Assembly (NCBI GenBank): GCA_020725805.1
Contig: DYEF01000107.1
Coordinates: 1 to 37,078, forward strand
Length of the DNA stretch: 37,078 bases
Direction of reading: 5' to 3'
Source: Bdellovibrio sp.
Lineage (GTDB): Bacteria; Myxococcota; SpSt-1050
Positions 1 to 6,358 of this stretch are shown in pieces (position 1 is the stretch's first letter; the number at the start of each line of letters is the position of its first letter). A program made the translations under genes and the position numbers. The notes beneath the pieces were generated by a model, which was given only the letters and a program-made list of their open reading frames with translations, was not told the origin of the DNA and ran no database searches.

Positions 1-1
1 A

Positions 2-1159
2 AAAGATAAGGTGTTAGTTGGCATATACATCAGTATATCAAACGACCATATTTTTCCTGCGATAGTTATGCCTTATGTGAAGGATAGAGAAGGTAAGAGT
101 ATGCTTGAACTGTTACAGGATAGATGTCCTGAATGTAAATTTACAAACGGGATAGTATATAGTGAGTTTAAGTGGATAGAGAAGTGTGAGAAGTGGGATG
201 ATAGTGATGCAGGGAGGAAGTGTGTGAAATGGTCTGATGATAGTTATAATCAGATATTTGCAAGTAGGGAGGTCTTTGAAAATCTATTGGAAGGGTATTT
301 ATCACATTCTATTTTTTCAAGAAGTGGTATGGCACTTGGAATAAATGCGTATGCTCCGGGTGCGTGTGTATATAGAGATTCAGATAAAGAATACTTAAAA
401 TCTCACTACTGCAAAAGCTTTATCAATTACAACAAATGGGTTATAAGAAGATATGGTGAGGGGAAGAATTTTATTAATTTTTTAAGAATTTATGGAAAAA
501 TATCTGGTGTATTTAAAGAAAATAATAAGGATTGTACAAATGAATACGATAAAAAGGATTTGTCTTTTGAGTTGAATTTCATGAATGATTGTAATGGTTT
601 TGATTCTGTGTTTGTAAACATTGATGGTGAATTGAAGACTCTTAATATTTGTGCTTTGGATTTTGGCGAGCAAACATGTACTAATAATCTGTATGGAGAT
701 TGTGCAGAGTTTAACGCTGTTGATCCACCTCTATATCAGGATTCGGAGTATTGCTGGGGGATATATCAATGTAAAGAGAAATTTTATTCTTATTATCTTG
801 ATAAATTTAATAATTATCCACTTTTTATATCTGAGATAGGTTCTCAGTCGTCAGAGTTTAGTGCACATAGTTCATCTATATCGAGTTCATCTAATGAGGG
901 CTGGATAAATAGACCTATGACAGAAAATATTTATGGAATTACAAATATTAAGGATTATCAGGAGCAGGTGGATATGATAGAATCTGATGTTTATGTATTT
1001 TTAAGTAATGAGTATTTGAGAAGTAATAAAAAGTTAAAGGGGATTATGATATTTTCAGATAACCTTCTGCCCGAAAAAAATCAGCTATTCTATTACGACT
1101 TCCCGCCCACTGGAAAAGCATCGAATAAATATATAGAGTTAATCGGAGAAGGGAGATAG
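2..1159 (+). CDS. Hypothetical protein, 5'-truncated; possible TIM-barrel glycosidase relative
   Basis: I do not recognise this family with certainty. The frame is open to the window edge, and the GTG at 11 has no visible ribosome binding site, so the true start probably lies outside. About 385 residues are visible. They are Cys-rich and AT-rich in codon use, with no transmembrane segment. The stretch G-I-N-A-Y-A-P-G near residue 110 and P-L-F-I-S-E-I-G near residue 270 (Glu275 counted from the GTG) resemble the substrate-strand and nucleophile-strand motifs of TIM-barrel glycoside hydrolases. The last strand, K-G-I-M-I-F-S-D, would then be beta-8. That reading is an inference from motif shape. 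A Ser-rich patch lies at about residues 283-297. The gene ends 2 bases before the first lipoprotein gene, so the two probably share an mRNA. Its last 60-70 codons recur, decayed, three more times downstream. Confidence 0.7.
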   Translation, partial: KDKVLVGIYISISNDHIFPAIVMPYVKDREGKSMLELLQDRCPECKFTNGIVYSEFKWIEKCEKWDDSDAGRKCVKWSDDSYNQIFASREVFENLLEGYLSHSIFSRSGMALGINAYAPGACVYRDSDKEYLKSHYCKSFINYNKWVIRRYGEGKNFINFLRIYGKISGVFKENNKDCTNEYDKKDLSFELNFMNDCNGFDSVFVNIDGELKTLNICALDFGEQTCTNNLYGDCAEFNAVDPPLYQDSEYCWGIYQCKEKFYSYYLDKFNNYPLFISEIGSQSSEFSAHSSSISSSSNEGWINRPMTENIYGITNIKDYQEQVDMIESDVYVFLSNEYLRSNKKLKGIMIFSDNLLPEKNQLFYYDFPPTGKASNKYIELIGEGR

Positions 1160-1161
1160 AT

Positions 1162-2763
1162 ATGAGCAAGGTATTAAGAATAATATCTGTGTTTATAATA
1201 ATAGTTACCTCTTTCAGTTGCGAGGTAAGGGAAAAATTTACTACTACTGATAGTAAAGAGTATTATAACACTGAAGATCTAGATAAATTGAAGGATATAA
1301 TGGTTTGGGATACAAATGAATTAGATAATGAGGAGAAATATTTTGAATGTAATTTTAAGCATTCAAATCTTAAGTTATTATTTGTTGGAGAGGATGGTGT
1401 TCTACTTAGTAACAGCGGTAGACTTATGAAAATAAAAGAGAGTGGTGAGATAGTTTTGGATAGGGTTTATTTAGATTCAGAAGAGGGAAAAAGATTAGAT
1501 ATATTATTTTTATCAAGTGTATCTGATGGTGGGTATATAGCGATTTTTTCCTCCAAAGATAGTATAGATGATGTAGATTCCCGGAATTACAATTATTATA
1601 TAGTTAAGTTAAGTAATAGTTTTGATATAGAATGGGCTAAACAATTAGAAAGATATATAGAGACTAATTCAACAGTTTTGTTCACTGTTTATAGTATTGC
1701 TTCTCTTATGAATCTTGGAGAAGATAGATATGGTGTTATTTTGATTGGTTATGCTAGGGTATTTATTGGGGAACCTGGGACAGTAGATATTTACAGAAAA
1801 CTATATATTATAATTGACAAAAATGGTAAGGTAGAACTGGGGAGGTTTTTTGGTTCTGATGCGGATGCAAGGAGAAACTATATCTTTGATTTAATACCTG
1901 TTAATAGTCCAGAGAATGGATATTTGATGATATCTGATGAATATGATGACTATAATTATGGAGATGATTATCGACAGAGTTGCGTGGGAGATATTTACAT
2001 AACAAAACTAGATAAAAATGGAGACATTATTTGGAAAAAAGCATATAATTATTGGTATGCAGATAGATATGTCTTTGATTATAACATATTACGAATATCT
2101 GGAAGTGGTTATATTATAGGTGGAGGTATGGGATACATTGGAGAAGATAGAAAAGGTTATTTCATCTTAAAAATAGATGAAGATGGAAATATAATAAAGT
2201 CGATTGGATACAATTTGTACAACAAAGAAGGAAGGGAGATCCAGAAGAAATTAGATTTTGGTATTAGCTTTATCGAAAATAATAATAAAAGGGGGGAATA
2301 TGTATTAAGTGGATTATACTCAAGAGGTTTAGATGAGGGGGAATATTTTGTGATAATGAATATAAACGAAGAGGGTAAAGTTAAATGGGTATACAATAAT
2401 GAAAGGGAGAGGATAAAAGAAGAAATAGACTGTACTATGTGTAATTGCAATTTTGACCCTCCATATTTAGCAAGTTTTTTTAGCGGAAATTATTTATACA
2501 TGAGGGGATATAGAGTTTATTGTGGTGATAAAAAGGTGGGAGAGTCTTCATTTGTTAAGAATATATCAAATAACGGATATATGTGTGATAGTAAATTTGA
2601 GAAGAATATTAAAATAAATGAAGGATATATAGATGTTGGTGTAAGTGAGTGTGAGAAGATACAAAAAGGGGTAGATGTTAATGTAGGTTTAAAAAATATT
2701 ATTAACAAATTTTTTGTTAGAGATTACAATGACAACATATGTAGTATATGTAAAAACAGGTGA
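1162..2763 (+). CDS. Predicted beta-propeller lipoprotein, copy 1
   Basis: The protein has 533 residues. A hydrophobic signal segment (residues 4-19) ends in S-F-S-C, a relaxed lipobox with Cys20 as the likely lipidated residue. The body contains about six repeats of the form G-G/N-G-Y-x-x-x-G followed by K-L-D-x-N-G-x-I-x-W-x-K (for example near residues 275-295). This pattern is typical of PQQ-like or WD40-like beta-propeller blades in exported bacterial proteins. The C-terminus carries C-S-I-C six residues from the end of the chain region, and a second Cys cluster (C-T-M-C-N-C) lies near residue 430. The start is supported by GGGAG six bases upstream. It follows the preceding gene by 2 bases. 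It is the most divergent of the three paralogues in this array. The ligand and function are unknown; the family fold is inferred from the repeats only. Confidence 0.8.
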   Translation: MSKVLRIISVFIIIVTSFSCEVREKFTTTDSKEYYNTEDLDKLKDIMVWDTNELDNEEKYFECNFKHSNLKLLFVGEDGVLLSNSGRLMKIKESGEIVLDRVYLDSEEGKRLDILFLSSVSDGGYIAIFSSKDSIDDVDSRNYNYYIVKLSNSFDIEWAKQLERYIETNSTVLFTVYSIASLMNLGEDRYGVILIGYARVFIGEPGTVDIYRKLYIIIDKNGKVELGRFFGSDADARRNYIFDLIPVNSPENGYLMISDEYDDYNYGDDYRQSCVGDIYITKLDKNGDIIWKKAYNYWYADRYVFDYNILRISGSGYIIGGGMGYIGEDRKGYFILKIDEDGNIIKSIGYNLYNKEGREIQKKLDFGISFIENNNKRGEYVLSGLYSRGLDEGEYFVIMNINEEGKVKWVYNNERERIKEEIDCTMCNCNFDPPYLASFFSGNYLYMRGYRVYCGDKKVGESSFVKNISNNGYMCDSKFEKNIKINEGYIDVGVSECEKIQKGVDVNVGLKNIINKFFVRDYNDNICSICKNR

Positions 2764-2838
2764 TTGGGGAAATTGATTGATTTGGTTTATTGGAGAATGA
2801 AGGTGGTTATATTGTAGGTGTAAATAGTATTTTAGTCT

Positions 2839-3040
2839 ATCACAGGAGCAGGTTGATATGATAGAGGGAGATGTTGCAGTGTTTTTATTAAATGAAAACT
2901 TAAGAGCACGTAAGAGACTAAAAGGGATAATATCATACTCAGATGATTTACTACCGGAGATTGATCGATTATTCTGGTATAACTTTCCAACAACAAGAAA
3001 ACCATCTGATGAGTTTTTAAGATTGTTAACTGGAAAATGA
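2839..3040 (+). pseudogene. 3' fragment of the upstream hypothetical gene, decayed copy 2
   Basis: The region from the E-Q-V-D-M-I-E motif to the stop matches the last part of the gene ending at 1159, including L-K-G-I, S-D-x-L-L-P-E and F-P-T-T-x-K-P-S. A two-base insertion just before that motif (TATCACAGG against TATCAGG) breaks the frame relative to the full-length gene. A 60-residue frame from ATG 2858 stays open, with AGGAG nine bases upstream, so a small peptide could be made. The stop codon region supplies the GAGG that serves as ribosome binding site for the next lipoprotein gene. I read it as a truncated duplicate rather than an independent gene. Confidence 0.7.
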
Positions 3041-3050
3041 GGTTGGAAAT

Positions 3051-4505
3051 ATGAGTTGTAATAATAGTTCAGCAGCTTTTAAAGTTTTTTTTATGATTAT
3101 ATTTATTGGCTGTGATTTAGGGAATCGTTATTTGCCGGTTAGTTATGTTACTGATAGTGACTATTTGGATATCACGGGAGATATAGATTTGGACAGTGGA
3201 AATGGTATAGATAACGGCGTTGGAAGAGGATTGTTCAGGTGTTACTCGAATGAGAACATAGAACCATTATATGGTAGTGAGGATGGAGTGATACTAAAAA
3301 AAGGTAATGGCATAATAAAAATGGATAATAATGGAAGAACTGTTTGGGGAAAAATATATAGATATAAAAACACCAAAGGAGAGTTTTCTTTTATAGACAT
3401 AAAAGATGTAGTAGATGCCGATAACGGCGGATATATGGTCCTTTGCTCCTTTGATTCGGGTTATAGCGAAGAAAAGACGAGAGGCATTTGTTTTATCAAG
3501 TTGAAATCTAATGGAGAAATAGATTGGGCTAAGGCTTATGTGGCAGCTTCGTATTTAGTATACCCTGTCCCTTATGCCTCTTATATAAACCCCATTTTAA
3601 TTCAAAGAATAATAGGAGGTAAATATGTAATTGTTGGTGGAATTAGTAGAGACTATAATATAGGAAATGGGATAATGGCACATGCAAATAATGGGTTATT
3701 AATAGTAATTGGCAACGATGGTTGTATTGATCTTCAAATAGAATACTCTAAAGAAGATGGTCTTAAAACATGTAACTACTTAGTTACGAGCAGTGATAAT
3801 GGATTTATAATTGTCTGTTCTGAGAACATAATAATGAAGATAGATAAAAATGGTAAAATTATTTGGAAGAAAGACATTAGTTCTCTAATATATAGGTTAG
3901 GTTATATATATATTAGAGGATTTGAAAAGGTTTATGATGATGAATATATAATAGGAGGATTTAGTGAGTATCCAAAGAGTATCTATCTAATTAGGATAGA
4001 TGAAAAGGGAGAAATAAAAGAATTAAATAAGTATATGTTTTATGATGCTACAGGAATGGTTAAGGGAGTTAATATGTTCTCATTTGATTATGATATAAAA
4101 GGAAGTAGATATGTAATAAGCGGGATTATAGAAAATTTAGGTAGTATATTTAGCATAGATAAAAAACAAGAAAATATTTTATGGTTATATGGAGAAGAAG
4201 GTAATAATGAGGTCTCTAATTCATATATTTTGAGATTTTCAAATGGTTTTTATTTATATGTGATAAATAAAAAAGATAATTTTCCTTATGTTGTTAGGAA
4301 TGTTATGTTAGATGGAAATTTTTGTGGAGGGAAGAATCTACTTAGTTATACCGTAGATAAAATTGTAGAAAATAGTTTGAGTCTTAACATATATGATGGG
4401 GAGATAAATATAGGCCGGATAGGCCTAGTTGATTATGATACTGAGTTTGATGTTGAAATATATGAGGGTATTAAATGCGAAGACTGTATGTCAATTGATA
4501 GATAA
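3051..4505 (+). CDS. Predicted beta-propeller lipoprotein, copy 2
   Basis: The protein has 484 residues. The signal segment ends in I-F-I-G-C, so Cys21 is the likely lipidation site, with Asp at +2. About six blades of the type Y-x-x-x-G plus I-K-x-D-x-N-G-x-x-x-W-x-K can be traced. Clear ones are M-K-I-D-K-N-G-K-I-I-W-K-K near residue 265 and I-K-L-K-S-N-G-E-I-D-W-A-K near residue 155. It is a close paralogue of the gene at 4702: both begin the mature part with a Y-x-x-D-S-x-Y-L-D-I motif and share P-L-Y-x-x-x-D-G-V in the first blade. The chain ends in C-E-D-C about six residues from the terminus. The start is chosen because GAGG lies eight bases upstream and the ATATGAG context matches the other two copies. 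Function unknown. Confidence 0.8.
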   Translation: MSCNNSSAAFKVFFMIIFIGCDLGNRYLPVSYVTDSDYLDITGDIDLDSGNGIDNGVGRGLFRCYSNENIEPLYGSEDGVILKKGNGIIKMDNNGRTVWGKIYRYKNTKGEFSFIDIKDVVDADNGGYMVLCSFDSGYSEEKTRGICFIKLKSNGEIDWAKAYVAASYLVYPVPYASYINPILIQRIIGGKYVIVGGISRDYNIGNGIMAHANNGLLIVIGNDGCIDLQIEYSKEDGLKTCNYLVTSSDNGFIIVCSENIIMKIDKNGKIIWKKDISSLIYRLGYIYIRGFEKVYDDEYIIGGFSEYPKSIYLIRIDEKGEIKELNKYMFYDATGMVKGVNMFSFDYDIKGSRYVISGIIENLGSIFSIDKKQENILWLYGEEGNNEVSNSYILRFSNGFYLYVINKKDNFPYVVRNVMLDGNFCGGKNLLSYTVDKIVENSLSLNIYDGEINIGRIGLVDYDTEFDVEIYEGIKCEDCMSIDR

Positions 4506-4514
4506 TGGATGTTA

Positions 4515-4691
4515 GGAGGAGATGTTGCTGTGTTTTTAGATAGTTGATATTTGAGAAACAATCAGAAACTAAAGGGAGTAGTTATATTTTCCGATAATCT
4601 TTTACCAGAAAGTAGCCAACTTTTCTGGTATGATTTTCCAACAACTAAAAAACCGTCGAATTGGTTTTTGAGGTTATTATCAGGGAAGTGA
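4515..4691 (+). pseudogene. 3' fragment of the upstream hypothetical gene, decayed copy 3
   Basis: Reading from GGA 4515, the frame gives G-D-V-A-V-F-L-D-S, then an in-frame TGA at 4545-4547, then Y-L-R-N-N-Q-K-L-K-G and S-D-N-L-L-P-E through F-P-T-T-K-K-P-S to a TGA at 4689. This matches the C-terminal part of the gene ending at 1159, so it is a nonsense-broken remnant of it. The downstream half is still highly readable, which suggests recent decay or constraint on the DNA. Its final bases form the GAGG used by the lipoprotein gene at 4702. Confidence 0.75.
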
Positions 4692-4701
4692 GGATATGAA
4701 T

Positions 4702-6204
4702 ATGAGGTGGGAGAAAATTTTAGTTGTTTTTGAAGTTTATTTAATAATTATGATTATTAGTTGTAATGTTGGGGAACGTTATGTCACGCATAACTATATT
4801 AAAGACAGTGGTTATTTAGACATTAGTGAAGATGTAGTTCTGGATGTTAGGGATGACGCAGATACAGATGTAGGTATAAGAGAAAATTTTTTTAGTTGTT
4901 TATGGAAGGGAGATGTGAAGCCATTATATAGTGATAATGATGGAGTAGTACTAAGAAAGGATAATAGTTTAGTTAAGTTAGATAAAAACGGGAGGGTTCT
5001 TTGGGAGAAGGTATATGCATACAAAGACGAAAGTGGAGAATATCATTACTTAGGTAGGATAACAAGTGTCACTGGAACGGGAGATGGTGGTTATATGTTG
5101 GTTGGTAGTTTTACTATTTCACTTAATCCATATTATAGGGGTATTTATTTTCTTAAGTTAAGGTCTAATGGAGATATAGAATGGGGTAAGGCTTATGAAG
5201 AGTTTTTATATAATGGTTATTCTGTAAATTCGGTTTTGATAAAGGCAGGTAGGATCCGTGATGAAAGAGGGGGAGAAGTTTATTTGGTTACTGGTACAAT
5301 AGAATTTAATCTTGGTTATACGTCATTGGATAAGGGATTTTTGATTGTAATTAATAAAGATGGGGATTTAATATTTCAGATGATGTGGGATTATGGTGAG
5401 AGTAATTTTTTTAGTGAGGAGGAGATAAATGTTGTAGGTAGTTCTAATGGTGGATATTTGATGACAGATGGAAAAATAATTATTAATTTAGATGAAAAAG
5501 GGGACATTGTGTGGAAGAAAACAGATAATGCCTTATGGTACCACGAATGGTATAATATGGTGAAAGATTACCAAGAGGGTTATATTATTCTAGGGGGTCA
5601 AGAGAAGGTGCATAAAGATAAGAATGAGTATAGTTATGTTTTACTGAGAGTAAATGAAGAAGGTAAAGAAAAAGATTATTACGGATACAAGTTTTATAAT
5701 AACAATAATGGTAGAGTTTTTGAACCAAATATAAACTCACTAGAATATAGTGTTGAGGGTGATGGGTATGTAATAAGCGGTGTTGGTAGGGATTATTCTA
5801 AGGTACCTCCCTGGGAGGTAATAATTCTGATGAAAGTAGATAGTGAGGGTGGCGTTAGATGGGAATATGTAGCAAATGGGATAGATGAATATCAAAGTTC
5901 TAAATTACGGTTTTATATCATAAGAAACCCAGGCATGTCATATCTTATTACAGGTGTATTTGGGGGAGGTAATAAGTGGTTTTGTGTTTCTAAGAATGTT
6001 TCATCTGATGGATATTTTTGTGGCAGAGATGAATCATATAGGCATAGGATAGAGAGGCGTGTGATTAATGAATCTATTCTTGAAGAATATAATGGAGAGG
6101 TAAGGATTGAATCGTTAGATTTAAAAGTATTTGATACAGAGTTTAAGGTTGAGGATGTTGTTGATAATGAGAGGTGTGAGTTGTGTGGAATGGAGAGGAG
6201 GTAA
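4702..6204 (+). CDS. Predicted beta-propeller lipoprotein, copy 3
   Basis: The protein has 500 residues from ATG 4702. An ATG at 4696 is also in frame, but GAGG at 4690-4693 is only two bases from it and eight from 4702. The ATATGAG context and the position of the lipid Cys (Cys21, after M-I-I-S) also match copy 2 when 4702 is used. Roughly six propeller-type repeats are visible, for example K-L-D-K-N-G-R-V-L-W-E-K, L-R-S-N-G-D-I-E-W-G-K and L-D-E-K-G-D-I-V-W-K-K, each preceded by a G-G-Y-x-x-x-G strand. The chain ends in C-E-L-C a few residues from the terminus, as in the other copies. It is likely anchored to a membrane facing the periplasm or surface. Partner and role are unknown. Confidence 0.8.
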   Translation: MRWEKILVVFEVYLIIMIISCNVGERYVTHNYIKDSGYLDISEDVVLDVRDDADTDVGIRENFFSCLWKGDVKPLYSDNDGVVLRKDNSLVKLDKNGRVLWEKVYAYKDESGEYHYLGRITSVTGTGDGGYMLVGSFTISLNPYYRGIYFLKLRSNGDIEWGKAYEEFLYNGYSVNSVLIKAGRIRDERGGEVYLVTGTIEFNLGYTSLDKGFLIVINKDGDLIFQMMWDYGESNFFSEEEINVVGSSNGGYLMTDGKIIINLDEKGDIVWKKTDNALWYHEWYNMVKDYQEGYIILGGQEKVHKDKNEYSYVLLRVNEEGKEKDYYGYKFYNNNNGRVFEPNINSLEYSVEGDGYVISGVGRDYSKVPPWEVIILMKVDSEGGVRWEYVANGIDEYQSSKLRFYIIRNPGMSYLITGVFGGGNKWFCVSKNVSSDGYFCGRDESYRHRIERRVINESILEEYNGEVRIESLDLKVFDTEFKVEDVVDNERCELCGMERR

Positions 6205-6232
6205 ATGTAAGGACATTCTTGTAAAATGATGT

Positions 6233-6358
6233 AAGGATTATCAGGAGCAGGTTGATATGATAGAGGCAGGAATAGCGACGATACTTAATGAGAGAGATGT
6301 AAATGGTGGTAAGAGAGTAAAGGGAATAATGGAGGCTTGTCAAGAATTTTGTGTCTGA
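6233..6358 (+). pseudogene. 3' fragment of the hypothetical gene, decayed copy 4, end of the array
   Basis: The frame reads K-D-Y-Q-E-Q-V-D-M-I-E, matching the full-length gene near 949-989, also almost exactly at the DNA level. It continues with a diverged helix to R-V-K-G-I-M, where similarity stops at about base 6334. The rest of the frame (to TGA 6356) is unrelated. The S-D-N-L-L-P-E and F-P-T-T parts kept in the other copies are missing, and no lipoprotein gene follows. This breakpoint marks the right edge of the duplicated array. Confidence 0.65.

What the first reader, a model, noticed from the sequence alone, without database searches (positions are those of the whole stretch)
2..6358. 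Tandem two-gene module with one partner repeatedly lost
A long gene plus a lipoprotein gene seem to have been duplicated in tandem at least four times. The lipoprotein is intact three times while the long gene survives only as 3' stubs of about 40-65 codons, one with an in-frame TGA, one with a two-base insertion, one cut off before the last strand. The pattern suggests selection for lipoprotein diversity, with the partner needed in one copy only.
Basis: partly seen in the sequence, partly recalled or inferred. Interest (0 to 1): 0.6.

Follow-up and report, generated by a model that had tools for sequence, protein, structure and literature searches.

The report
Tandem lipoprotein genes with partner-gene stubs
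In an uncultured bacterium a lipoprotein gene has been copied in tandem together with only the tail end of its neighbour gene; this is a real, genus-restricted gene array, mostly of a familiar kind, but it belongs to a wider set of fast-changing exported-protein genes that share an unusual repeat-bearing leader.

Summary
At 1-6358 there is one long gene (5' end lost at the contig end), three homologous intact lipoprotein genes (25-37% identical) and three 3' fragments of the long gene (60%, 60% and 47% identical over 62, 58 and 36 codons). The same fragment recurs at a contig end elsewhere in the genome and, next to a related lipoprotein gene, in the only other species of the genus held (MAG SKW273), where no long copy is found.

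Lipoproteins have diverged far more than the fragments. Fragments as a set are not simply neutral: 52-64% amino-acid identity with near-saturated synonymous sites. S2 is an open 60-codon frame with a Shine-Dalgarno sequence. S3 (in-frame TGA) and S4 (cut by a transposase remnant) look dead. 'Partner needed in one copy' is not shown.

New here: outside the window, the stub-lipoprotein unit sits behind a genus-specific 71-nt leader with (CTAT)3-7 repeats. Ten copies exist in the two genomes, mostly before AT-rich exported-protein genes and often at assembly breaks.

Best reading: tandem duplication of [long-gene 3' end + lipoprotein gene] in a decaying surface-protein island. The stub's role, perhaps translational coupling or recombination homology, is inferred.

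The parts
2..1159 (+). Long gene, 5' end lost at contig end (385 codons left); C-terminal motifs (PLFISEIG ... LKGIMIFSDN) recall a TIM-barrel glycoside hydrolase by eye only
   Evidence: no Pfam, NCBIfam, PDB or plasmid hit; fold model uninformative, pLDDT 33
949..1156 (+). 3' part of the long gene that recurs as stubs (S1 reference; includes internal CAGGAGCAGGTGGATATG, which reads as Shine-Dalgarno plus ATG)
1162..2763 (+). Lipoprotein gene LP1 (533 aa), 2 nt after the long gene's stop
2798..2820 (+). Short scrap resembling a lipoprotein repeat motif (87% to 2100-2122), upstream of S2; possible junction debris
   Evidence: family D15
2837..3040 (+). Stub S2: open 60-codon frame from ATG 2858 with AGGAG 9 nt upstream; stop 10 nt before LP2
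3051..4505 (+). Lipoprotein gene LP2 (484 aa)
4506..4691 (+). Stub S3: starts directly after LP2's stop, in-frame TGA, then open for 46 codons; stop 4 nt before LP3
4696..6204 (+). Lipoprotein gene LP3 (502 aa from 4696; ATG at 4702 has the better Shine-Dalgarno spacing)
   Evidence: beta-propeller-like model, pLDDT 55
6227..6334 (+). Stub S4: truncated, no lipoprotein after it; 77 nt identical to a stub at the end of contig C97
6332..6405 (-). Remnant of the 5' end of an IS200-like (Y1) transposase gene that ends S4 (80% over 74 nt to the end of contig C60)

Best explanation
The array is a genus-restricted, AT-rich island of exported-protein genes. It grew by tandem duplication of a unit that runs from near the 3' end of a long gene to the end of the lipoprotein gene behind it, so each new copy brought an intact lipoprotein gene with a headless tail of the long gene. 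Later unequal crossing-over or short gene conversion between the tails extended and mixed the array. The lipoproteins (beta-propeller-like, probably at the cell surface) diverged strongly. The tails lost the original role; some (S2, and the copy in SKW273) stayed open reading frames, probably because they are the leader cistron through which the downstream lipoprotein gene is transcribed and translated (stop and start codons from a 4-nt overlap to 10 nt apart, Shine-Dalgarno inside the tail), while others decayed (S3 stop codon, S4 transposase remnant). At other sites of the genus the same tail sits behind a shared leader with an inverted repeat and CTAT repeats. Shown: homology, arrangement, recurrence, composition, decay, leader element. 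Inferred: order of events, operon transcription, coupling role, surface location.
For: Homology of three lipoproteins and four tails. Each junction joins a lipoprotein stop to nearly the same point of the long gene: S2 and S4 begin at the same CAGGAGCAGGTTGATATGATAGAGG (25 nt identical), S3 a few codons later. Short high-identity tracts between tails that otherwise share about 60-66% of bases: 77 nt identical S4-C97, 33 nt at 97% S1-S4. Stop-to-start distances of 2, 10 and 4 nt in the window and a 4-nt ATGA overlap in SKW273. Array G+C 31.7% against 44.9% for the rest of the contig. The array is absent from the same uvrD locus in SKW273, where homology starts at window 6412. Same tail + lipoprotein behind the shared leader at SKW273 C14. 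Beta-rich, propeller-type model with best PDB match to the beta-propeller enzyme CylK at E 2e-7, TM only 0.46.
Against: Near-saturated synonymous sites between tails whose protein sequence is still 57-64% alike mean that tails were coding for most of their history. If they had been tails all that time, pure debris is excluded; if they were full-length until recently, several separate deletions with similar end points are needed instead. No expression data. Translational coupling would need only the last codons, not 45-60. Two contigs (C104 left end, C97 right end) break inside the system, so the array's true start is unseen.
Confidence: 0.5

Rival explanations
1. One reading: full tandem duplication of a two-gene module, then independent loss of the long partner from all copies but one, with selection for diverse lipoproteins.
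For: Stubs retain signs of coding constraint as if they had long been part of full-length genes. S3 and S4 are broken. At C97 a lipoprotein-type signal peptide frame is followed by the tail, as after an internal deletion. A degenerate leader followed by the 3' fragment of another exported protein occurs at SKW273 C45.
Against: Needs several separate deletions ending within about 35 codons of each other and leaving no other trace of the long gene. SKW273 has no long copy at all, so 'needed in one copy' is not a rule.
Confidence: 0.25
2. The tail is the real conserved partner: a short cytoplasmic peptide (45-60 aa) that acts with, or regulates translation of, the lipoprotein; the long gene is the exception.
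For: S2 is open over 60 codons with AGGAG-9-ATG; in neutral simulations at 35-45% divergence 98-99% of such frames acquire a stop and protein identity falls to 25-37% (median) against 52-64% seen. SKW273 has a 70-codon open frame overlapping the lipoprotein start by ATGA.
Against: S3 has an in-frame TGA and evenly spread private changes. In SKW273 the frame's first half is not homologous to S2's. No relative outside the genus. Only two clean examples.
Confidence: 0.15
3. An effector-immunity array: the long gene is a secreted effector, the lipoproteins are immunity proteins collected in tandem, and the stubs are orphan effector tails, as in CDI/Rhs orphan modules.
For: Same layout as orphan cdiA-CT/cdiI arrays: a full gene followed by 3' fragments each with an intact downstream gene, fragments often lacking start signals and broken by mobile elements (PMC3150448).
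Against: Here the tails are the conserved part and homologous through to the stop codon, not polymorphic. The downstream protein is a roughly 500-aa propeller-like lipoprotein, far larger than typical immunity proteins (own knowledge). No toxin or secretion domain in the long gene by Pfam or NCBIfam.
Confidence: 0.05

Closest known systems
Paralogous lipoprotein families with decayed copies on Borrelia plasmids (PMC3303823)
   Same: Expanded surface lipoprotein paralogues, duplicative rearrangement followed by decay of damaged copies
   Different: Chromosome-type contig in an uncultured lineage; the decayed part is always the same tail of a neighbour gene in tandem with intact lipoprotein genes; no sequence relation found
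Orphan cdiA-CT/cdiI and rhs-CT modules (PMC3150448)
   Same: Full gene followed by tandem 3' fragments, each with an intact downstream gene; fragments mostly without start signals; mobile-element debris
   Different: Fragments here are conserved to the stop codon and the downstream gene varies; no VENN motif, no two-partner secretion genes seen; lipoprotein instead of small immunity protein
Contingency loci with tetranucleotide repeats (phase variation, e.g. Neisseria PMC5320596; review PMC11868660)
   Same: Tetranucleotide repeat of variable copy number (3, 5, 7) ahead of exported-protein genes
   Different: Repeat lies in a conserved leader with an inverted repeat; copy-number change within one strain not shown; not present in the window itself

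Membership tests
Orphan CDI/Rhs toxin-immunity modules | Fragment homologous to the main gene only up to a marker motif (VENN), then polymorphic toxin region | tested here: not met
   Stubs align to the long gene through to the stop codon, 52-64% identity; no VENN in translations
Orphan CDI/Rhs toxin-immunity modules | Each fragment followed by an intact small gene | tested here: inconclusive
   S2-LP2 and S3-LP3 are followed by intact genes, but these are about 500 aa; S4 has none
Glycoside hydrolase (TIM barrel) for the long gene | Match to a GH family profile or fold | tested here: inconclusive
   No Pfam hit at E<=1, no NCBIfam hit at E<=0.5, no PDB sequence hit at E<=10; model pLDDT 33; motif resemblance by eye only
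Beta-propeller lipoprotein | Propeller repeats and fold | tested here: inconclusive
   Weak PQQ_2/ASST hits below cut-off; model all-beta, pLDDT 55, pTM 0.56, best PDB match to the beta-propeller enzyme CylK at TM 0.46
Bacterial lipoprotein | N-terminal signal peptide ending in a lipobox cysteine | tested here: met
   Hydrophobic N-terminus then IISC (LP3), FIGC (LP2), SFSC (LP1; poor fit to the consensus), conserved Cys23 column; read by eye, no predictor run
Phase-variable (SSR) contingency locus | Repeat copy number differs between cells or strains | not testable with these tools
   Copy number differs between loci (3, 3, 7, 7 in own genome; 3, 3, 3, 3, 5 in SKW273) but no read data
Phase-variable (SSR) contingency locus | Repeat located in promoter/leader or frame of the gene | tested here: met
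   CTAT tract about 50-130 nt upstream of the first start codon at C97, C79, C32, C14, C110; none found in the window

The most novel reading that the evidence does not exclude
The leader with CTAT repeats, the stub and the lipoprotein genes form a surface-variation system of this genus: one expressed site (leader + stub) can be reloaded with lipoprotein genes from a tandem reserve such as the window's array by recombination within the stub, and CTAT-repeat slippage tunes or switches expression. Assembly breaks just after the leader copies would then reflect variation within the population.
Probability: 0.12. Interest if true: 0.75.

Novelty: new variant of a known kind. Interest (0 to 1): 0.4.

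Why it matters
It shows how a bacterium of an unstudied genus enlarges a set of exported lipoproteins: only the tail of the partner gene travels with each copy. The shared repeat-bearing leader at ten sites in two species, mostly in front of AT-rich exported-protein genes, points to a coordinated, fast-changing surface repertoire outside the pathogens in which such systems are usually studied. Long-read data would make this directly testable.

Tried and rejected
The long gene has no relative in 195 phylum genomes beyond the genus, none in PDB, none in plasmids; its single-sequence model is useless. LP3 has no relative in phages, and the LP profile none in viral contigs; the leader core is absent from viral contigs. 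The leader element matches no Rfam family; pair counts give little covariation beyond shuffles, so I do not claim a structured RNA, only a conserved inverted repeat. dN/dS of lipoproteins was computed but is uninformative because synonymous sites are near saturation. A weak stub match in G036 (E 0.005, one stop) was treated as chance. I considered that CTAT repeats drive the window's array: none found in the window, the contig starts too late. A search for papers on the isolate name found nothing.

Full report
Setting. The window is an entire contig (G000:C104) of a 3.29-Mb draft genome in 115 contigs, about 98% complete. The closest named relative found is 'Deltaproteobacteria bacterium isolate SKW273' (JAOAFA01; UvrD 72% identical). 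It is the same genome as G001, the only other member of the genus held: G195, the genome reached through its locus, gives the same matches at the same coordinates.

What is there. The long gene (2-1159) runs off the contig. It is followed by LP1 (1162-2763), stub S2 (2837-3040), LP2 (3051-4505), stub S3 (4506-4691), LP3 (4696-6204) and stub S4 (6227-6334). The lipoproteins are 25-37% identical to each other with E from 3e-15 to 2e-67. Stubs S2 and S3 are 60% identical to the long gene's last 58-62 codons (E 2e-17), S4 47% over 36 codons.

More copies. The whole-genome search adds a fifth tail at the extreme end of contig C97, 77 nt of which are identical to S4 (longest match in shuffled sequences 13). 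In SKW273 one tail stands directly before a lipoprotein of the same family at C14; its 70-codon frame overlaps the lipoprotein start codon (ATGA). Neither the long gene (apart from this tail), nor the tail, nor the leader occurs elsewhere in 195 genomes of the phylum, apart from one negligible tail match. In SKW273 the uvrD locus has no array; its homology with the window begins at window 6412, just after the array. The array's composition (31.7% G+C against 44.9%) also sets it apart.

End of the array. S4 stops at about 6334 where 74 nt match, at 80%, the start of an IS200-like (Pfam Y1_Tnp, E 7.8e-12) transposase gene at the end of contig C60, on the opposite strand. The last fragment is therefore debris with no lipoprotein behind it.

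Are the stubs neutral? Codon comparisons give dN 0.28-0.37 with dS about 2.2 or not computable for stubs, against dN 0.59-1.08 and dS 1.1-1.6 for lipoproteins (NG86, rough). Differences between stubs are concentrated at third positions in four of six pairs (p 0.0006, 0.005, 0.007, 0.035); S1-S3 and S2-S3 are not significant (p 0.14, 0.12). Private changes in the three-way comparison are third-biased in S1 (9,7,17) and S2 (10,5,15) and flat in S3 (6,7,8); with SKW273 added the S2 bias is gone (5,5,3). Neutral simulation at 35-45% divergence would leave 25-37% protein identity (median) and a stop in 98-99% of cases. So most of the divergence happened under coding constraint, S3 and S4 look dead now, and S2 may still be read. 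The data cannot say whether the constraint acted on stubs or on longer ancestors.

How it most likely arose and works. The junction points nearly coincide (S2 and S4 start with the same 25 nt; S3 a few codons later), which fits an original duplication joining a lipoprotein's end to one place in the long gene, followed by further rounds of unequal crossing-over; the patchy tracts of identity (77 nt, 33 nt) fit later exchange between tails. In S2 and S4 the in-frame codons CAG GAG CAG supply AGGAG nine bases before an in-frame ATG, so a headless tail is a ready-made small cistron; its stop lies 10 nt before LP2 (4 nt for S3-LP3; overlap in SKW273). I take the tail to be a leader cistron that keeps the lipoprotein gene in the operon and perhaps couples its translation. 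That step is inferred.

A wider system outside the window. Upstream of the tail at C97 and at SKW273 C14 lies a conserved leader: an inverted repeat (ACCTCARCAA...TTGYYTGAGGT), TTATAAAATTTAGTTCTCACAC and (CTAT)n. A profile finds ten copies in the two genomes and none in 193 other phylum genomes. The repeat number is 7, 7, 3, 3 in this genome and 5, 3, 3, 3, 3 in SKW273; the tenth copy (C45) has lost the tract. What follows is mostly AT-rich exported-type genes: a 1034-aa protein with a weak reprolysin-like match and a lipoprotein (C110), a second lipoprotein/peptidase-like family (C79, C70), an RHS-type pair (SKW273 C32), and degenerate or truncated copies (C45; C97). Four of nine leaders lie within 320 nt of a contig end on the downstream side (p about 1e-5), which suggests repeated or variable sequence there. 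Whether the window's array has such a leader is unknown.

Known relatives. Layout resembles orphan CDI/Rhs modules (PMC3150448) but fails their defining feature. The biology resembles duplicated and decaying surface lipoprotein families in Borrelia (PMC3303823). CTAT tracts resemble contingency repeats, but variation is untested. Verdict: real, genus-specific, a new variant of a known kind; moderately interesting mainly because of the shared leader.

Noticed in passing
L024:5451-5521 (-); L014:18158-18229; L164:2072-2142; L165:2119-2189; L016:9343-9413; L166:1896-1966; L167:323-393; L168:162-232 (-); L169:1755-1825; L179:7841-7906 (-): Genus-specific 71-nt leader with inverted repeat and (CTAT)n (n = 3, 5 or 7; lost in the last copy), mostly ahead of AT-rich exported-protein genes; no Rfam match; 10 copies in two species
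   Followed up: partly
L014:18216-18556 (contig C97 right end): Leader + (CTAT)7 + 29-codon lipoprotein-type signal peptide ending in a stop + stub identical over 77 nt to window stub S4; looks like an internal deletion of the long gene
   Followed up: partly
L167:448-3652 (SKW273 contig C32): Two adjoining frames (445 and 626 aa) with RHS-type repeats behind the same leader; the whole contig is only 3.7 kb
   Followed up: no
L024:1921-5025 (-) and L165:2229-3191: AT-rich exported proteins with putative zinc-peptidase motifs (HESGH; HENKH) behind the leader; the second family (CNSPPEIVV) has near copies at C70, C79 and the left end of C110, all near contig ends
   Followed up: no
L141:7615-8070 (contig C60 right end): IS200-like (Y1) transposase gene at a contig end; its 5' end is the remnant that truncates window stub S4
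   Followed up: yes
L014:17934-18075 and L165:1951-2010: REP-like motif (GGTCGCTGAGT...GAAGCGATG) just upstream of two leader copies
   Followed up: no
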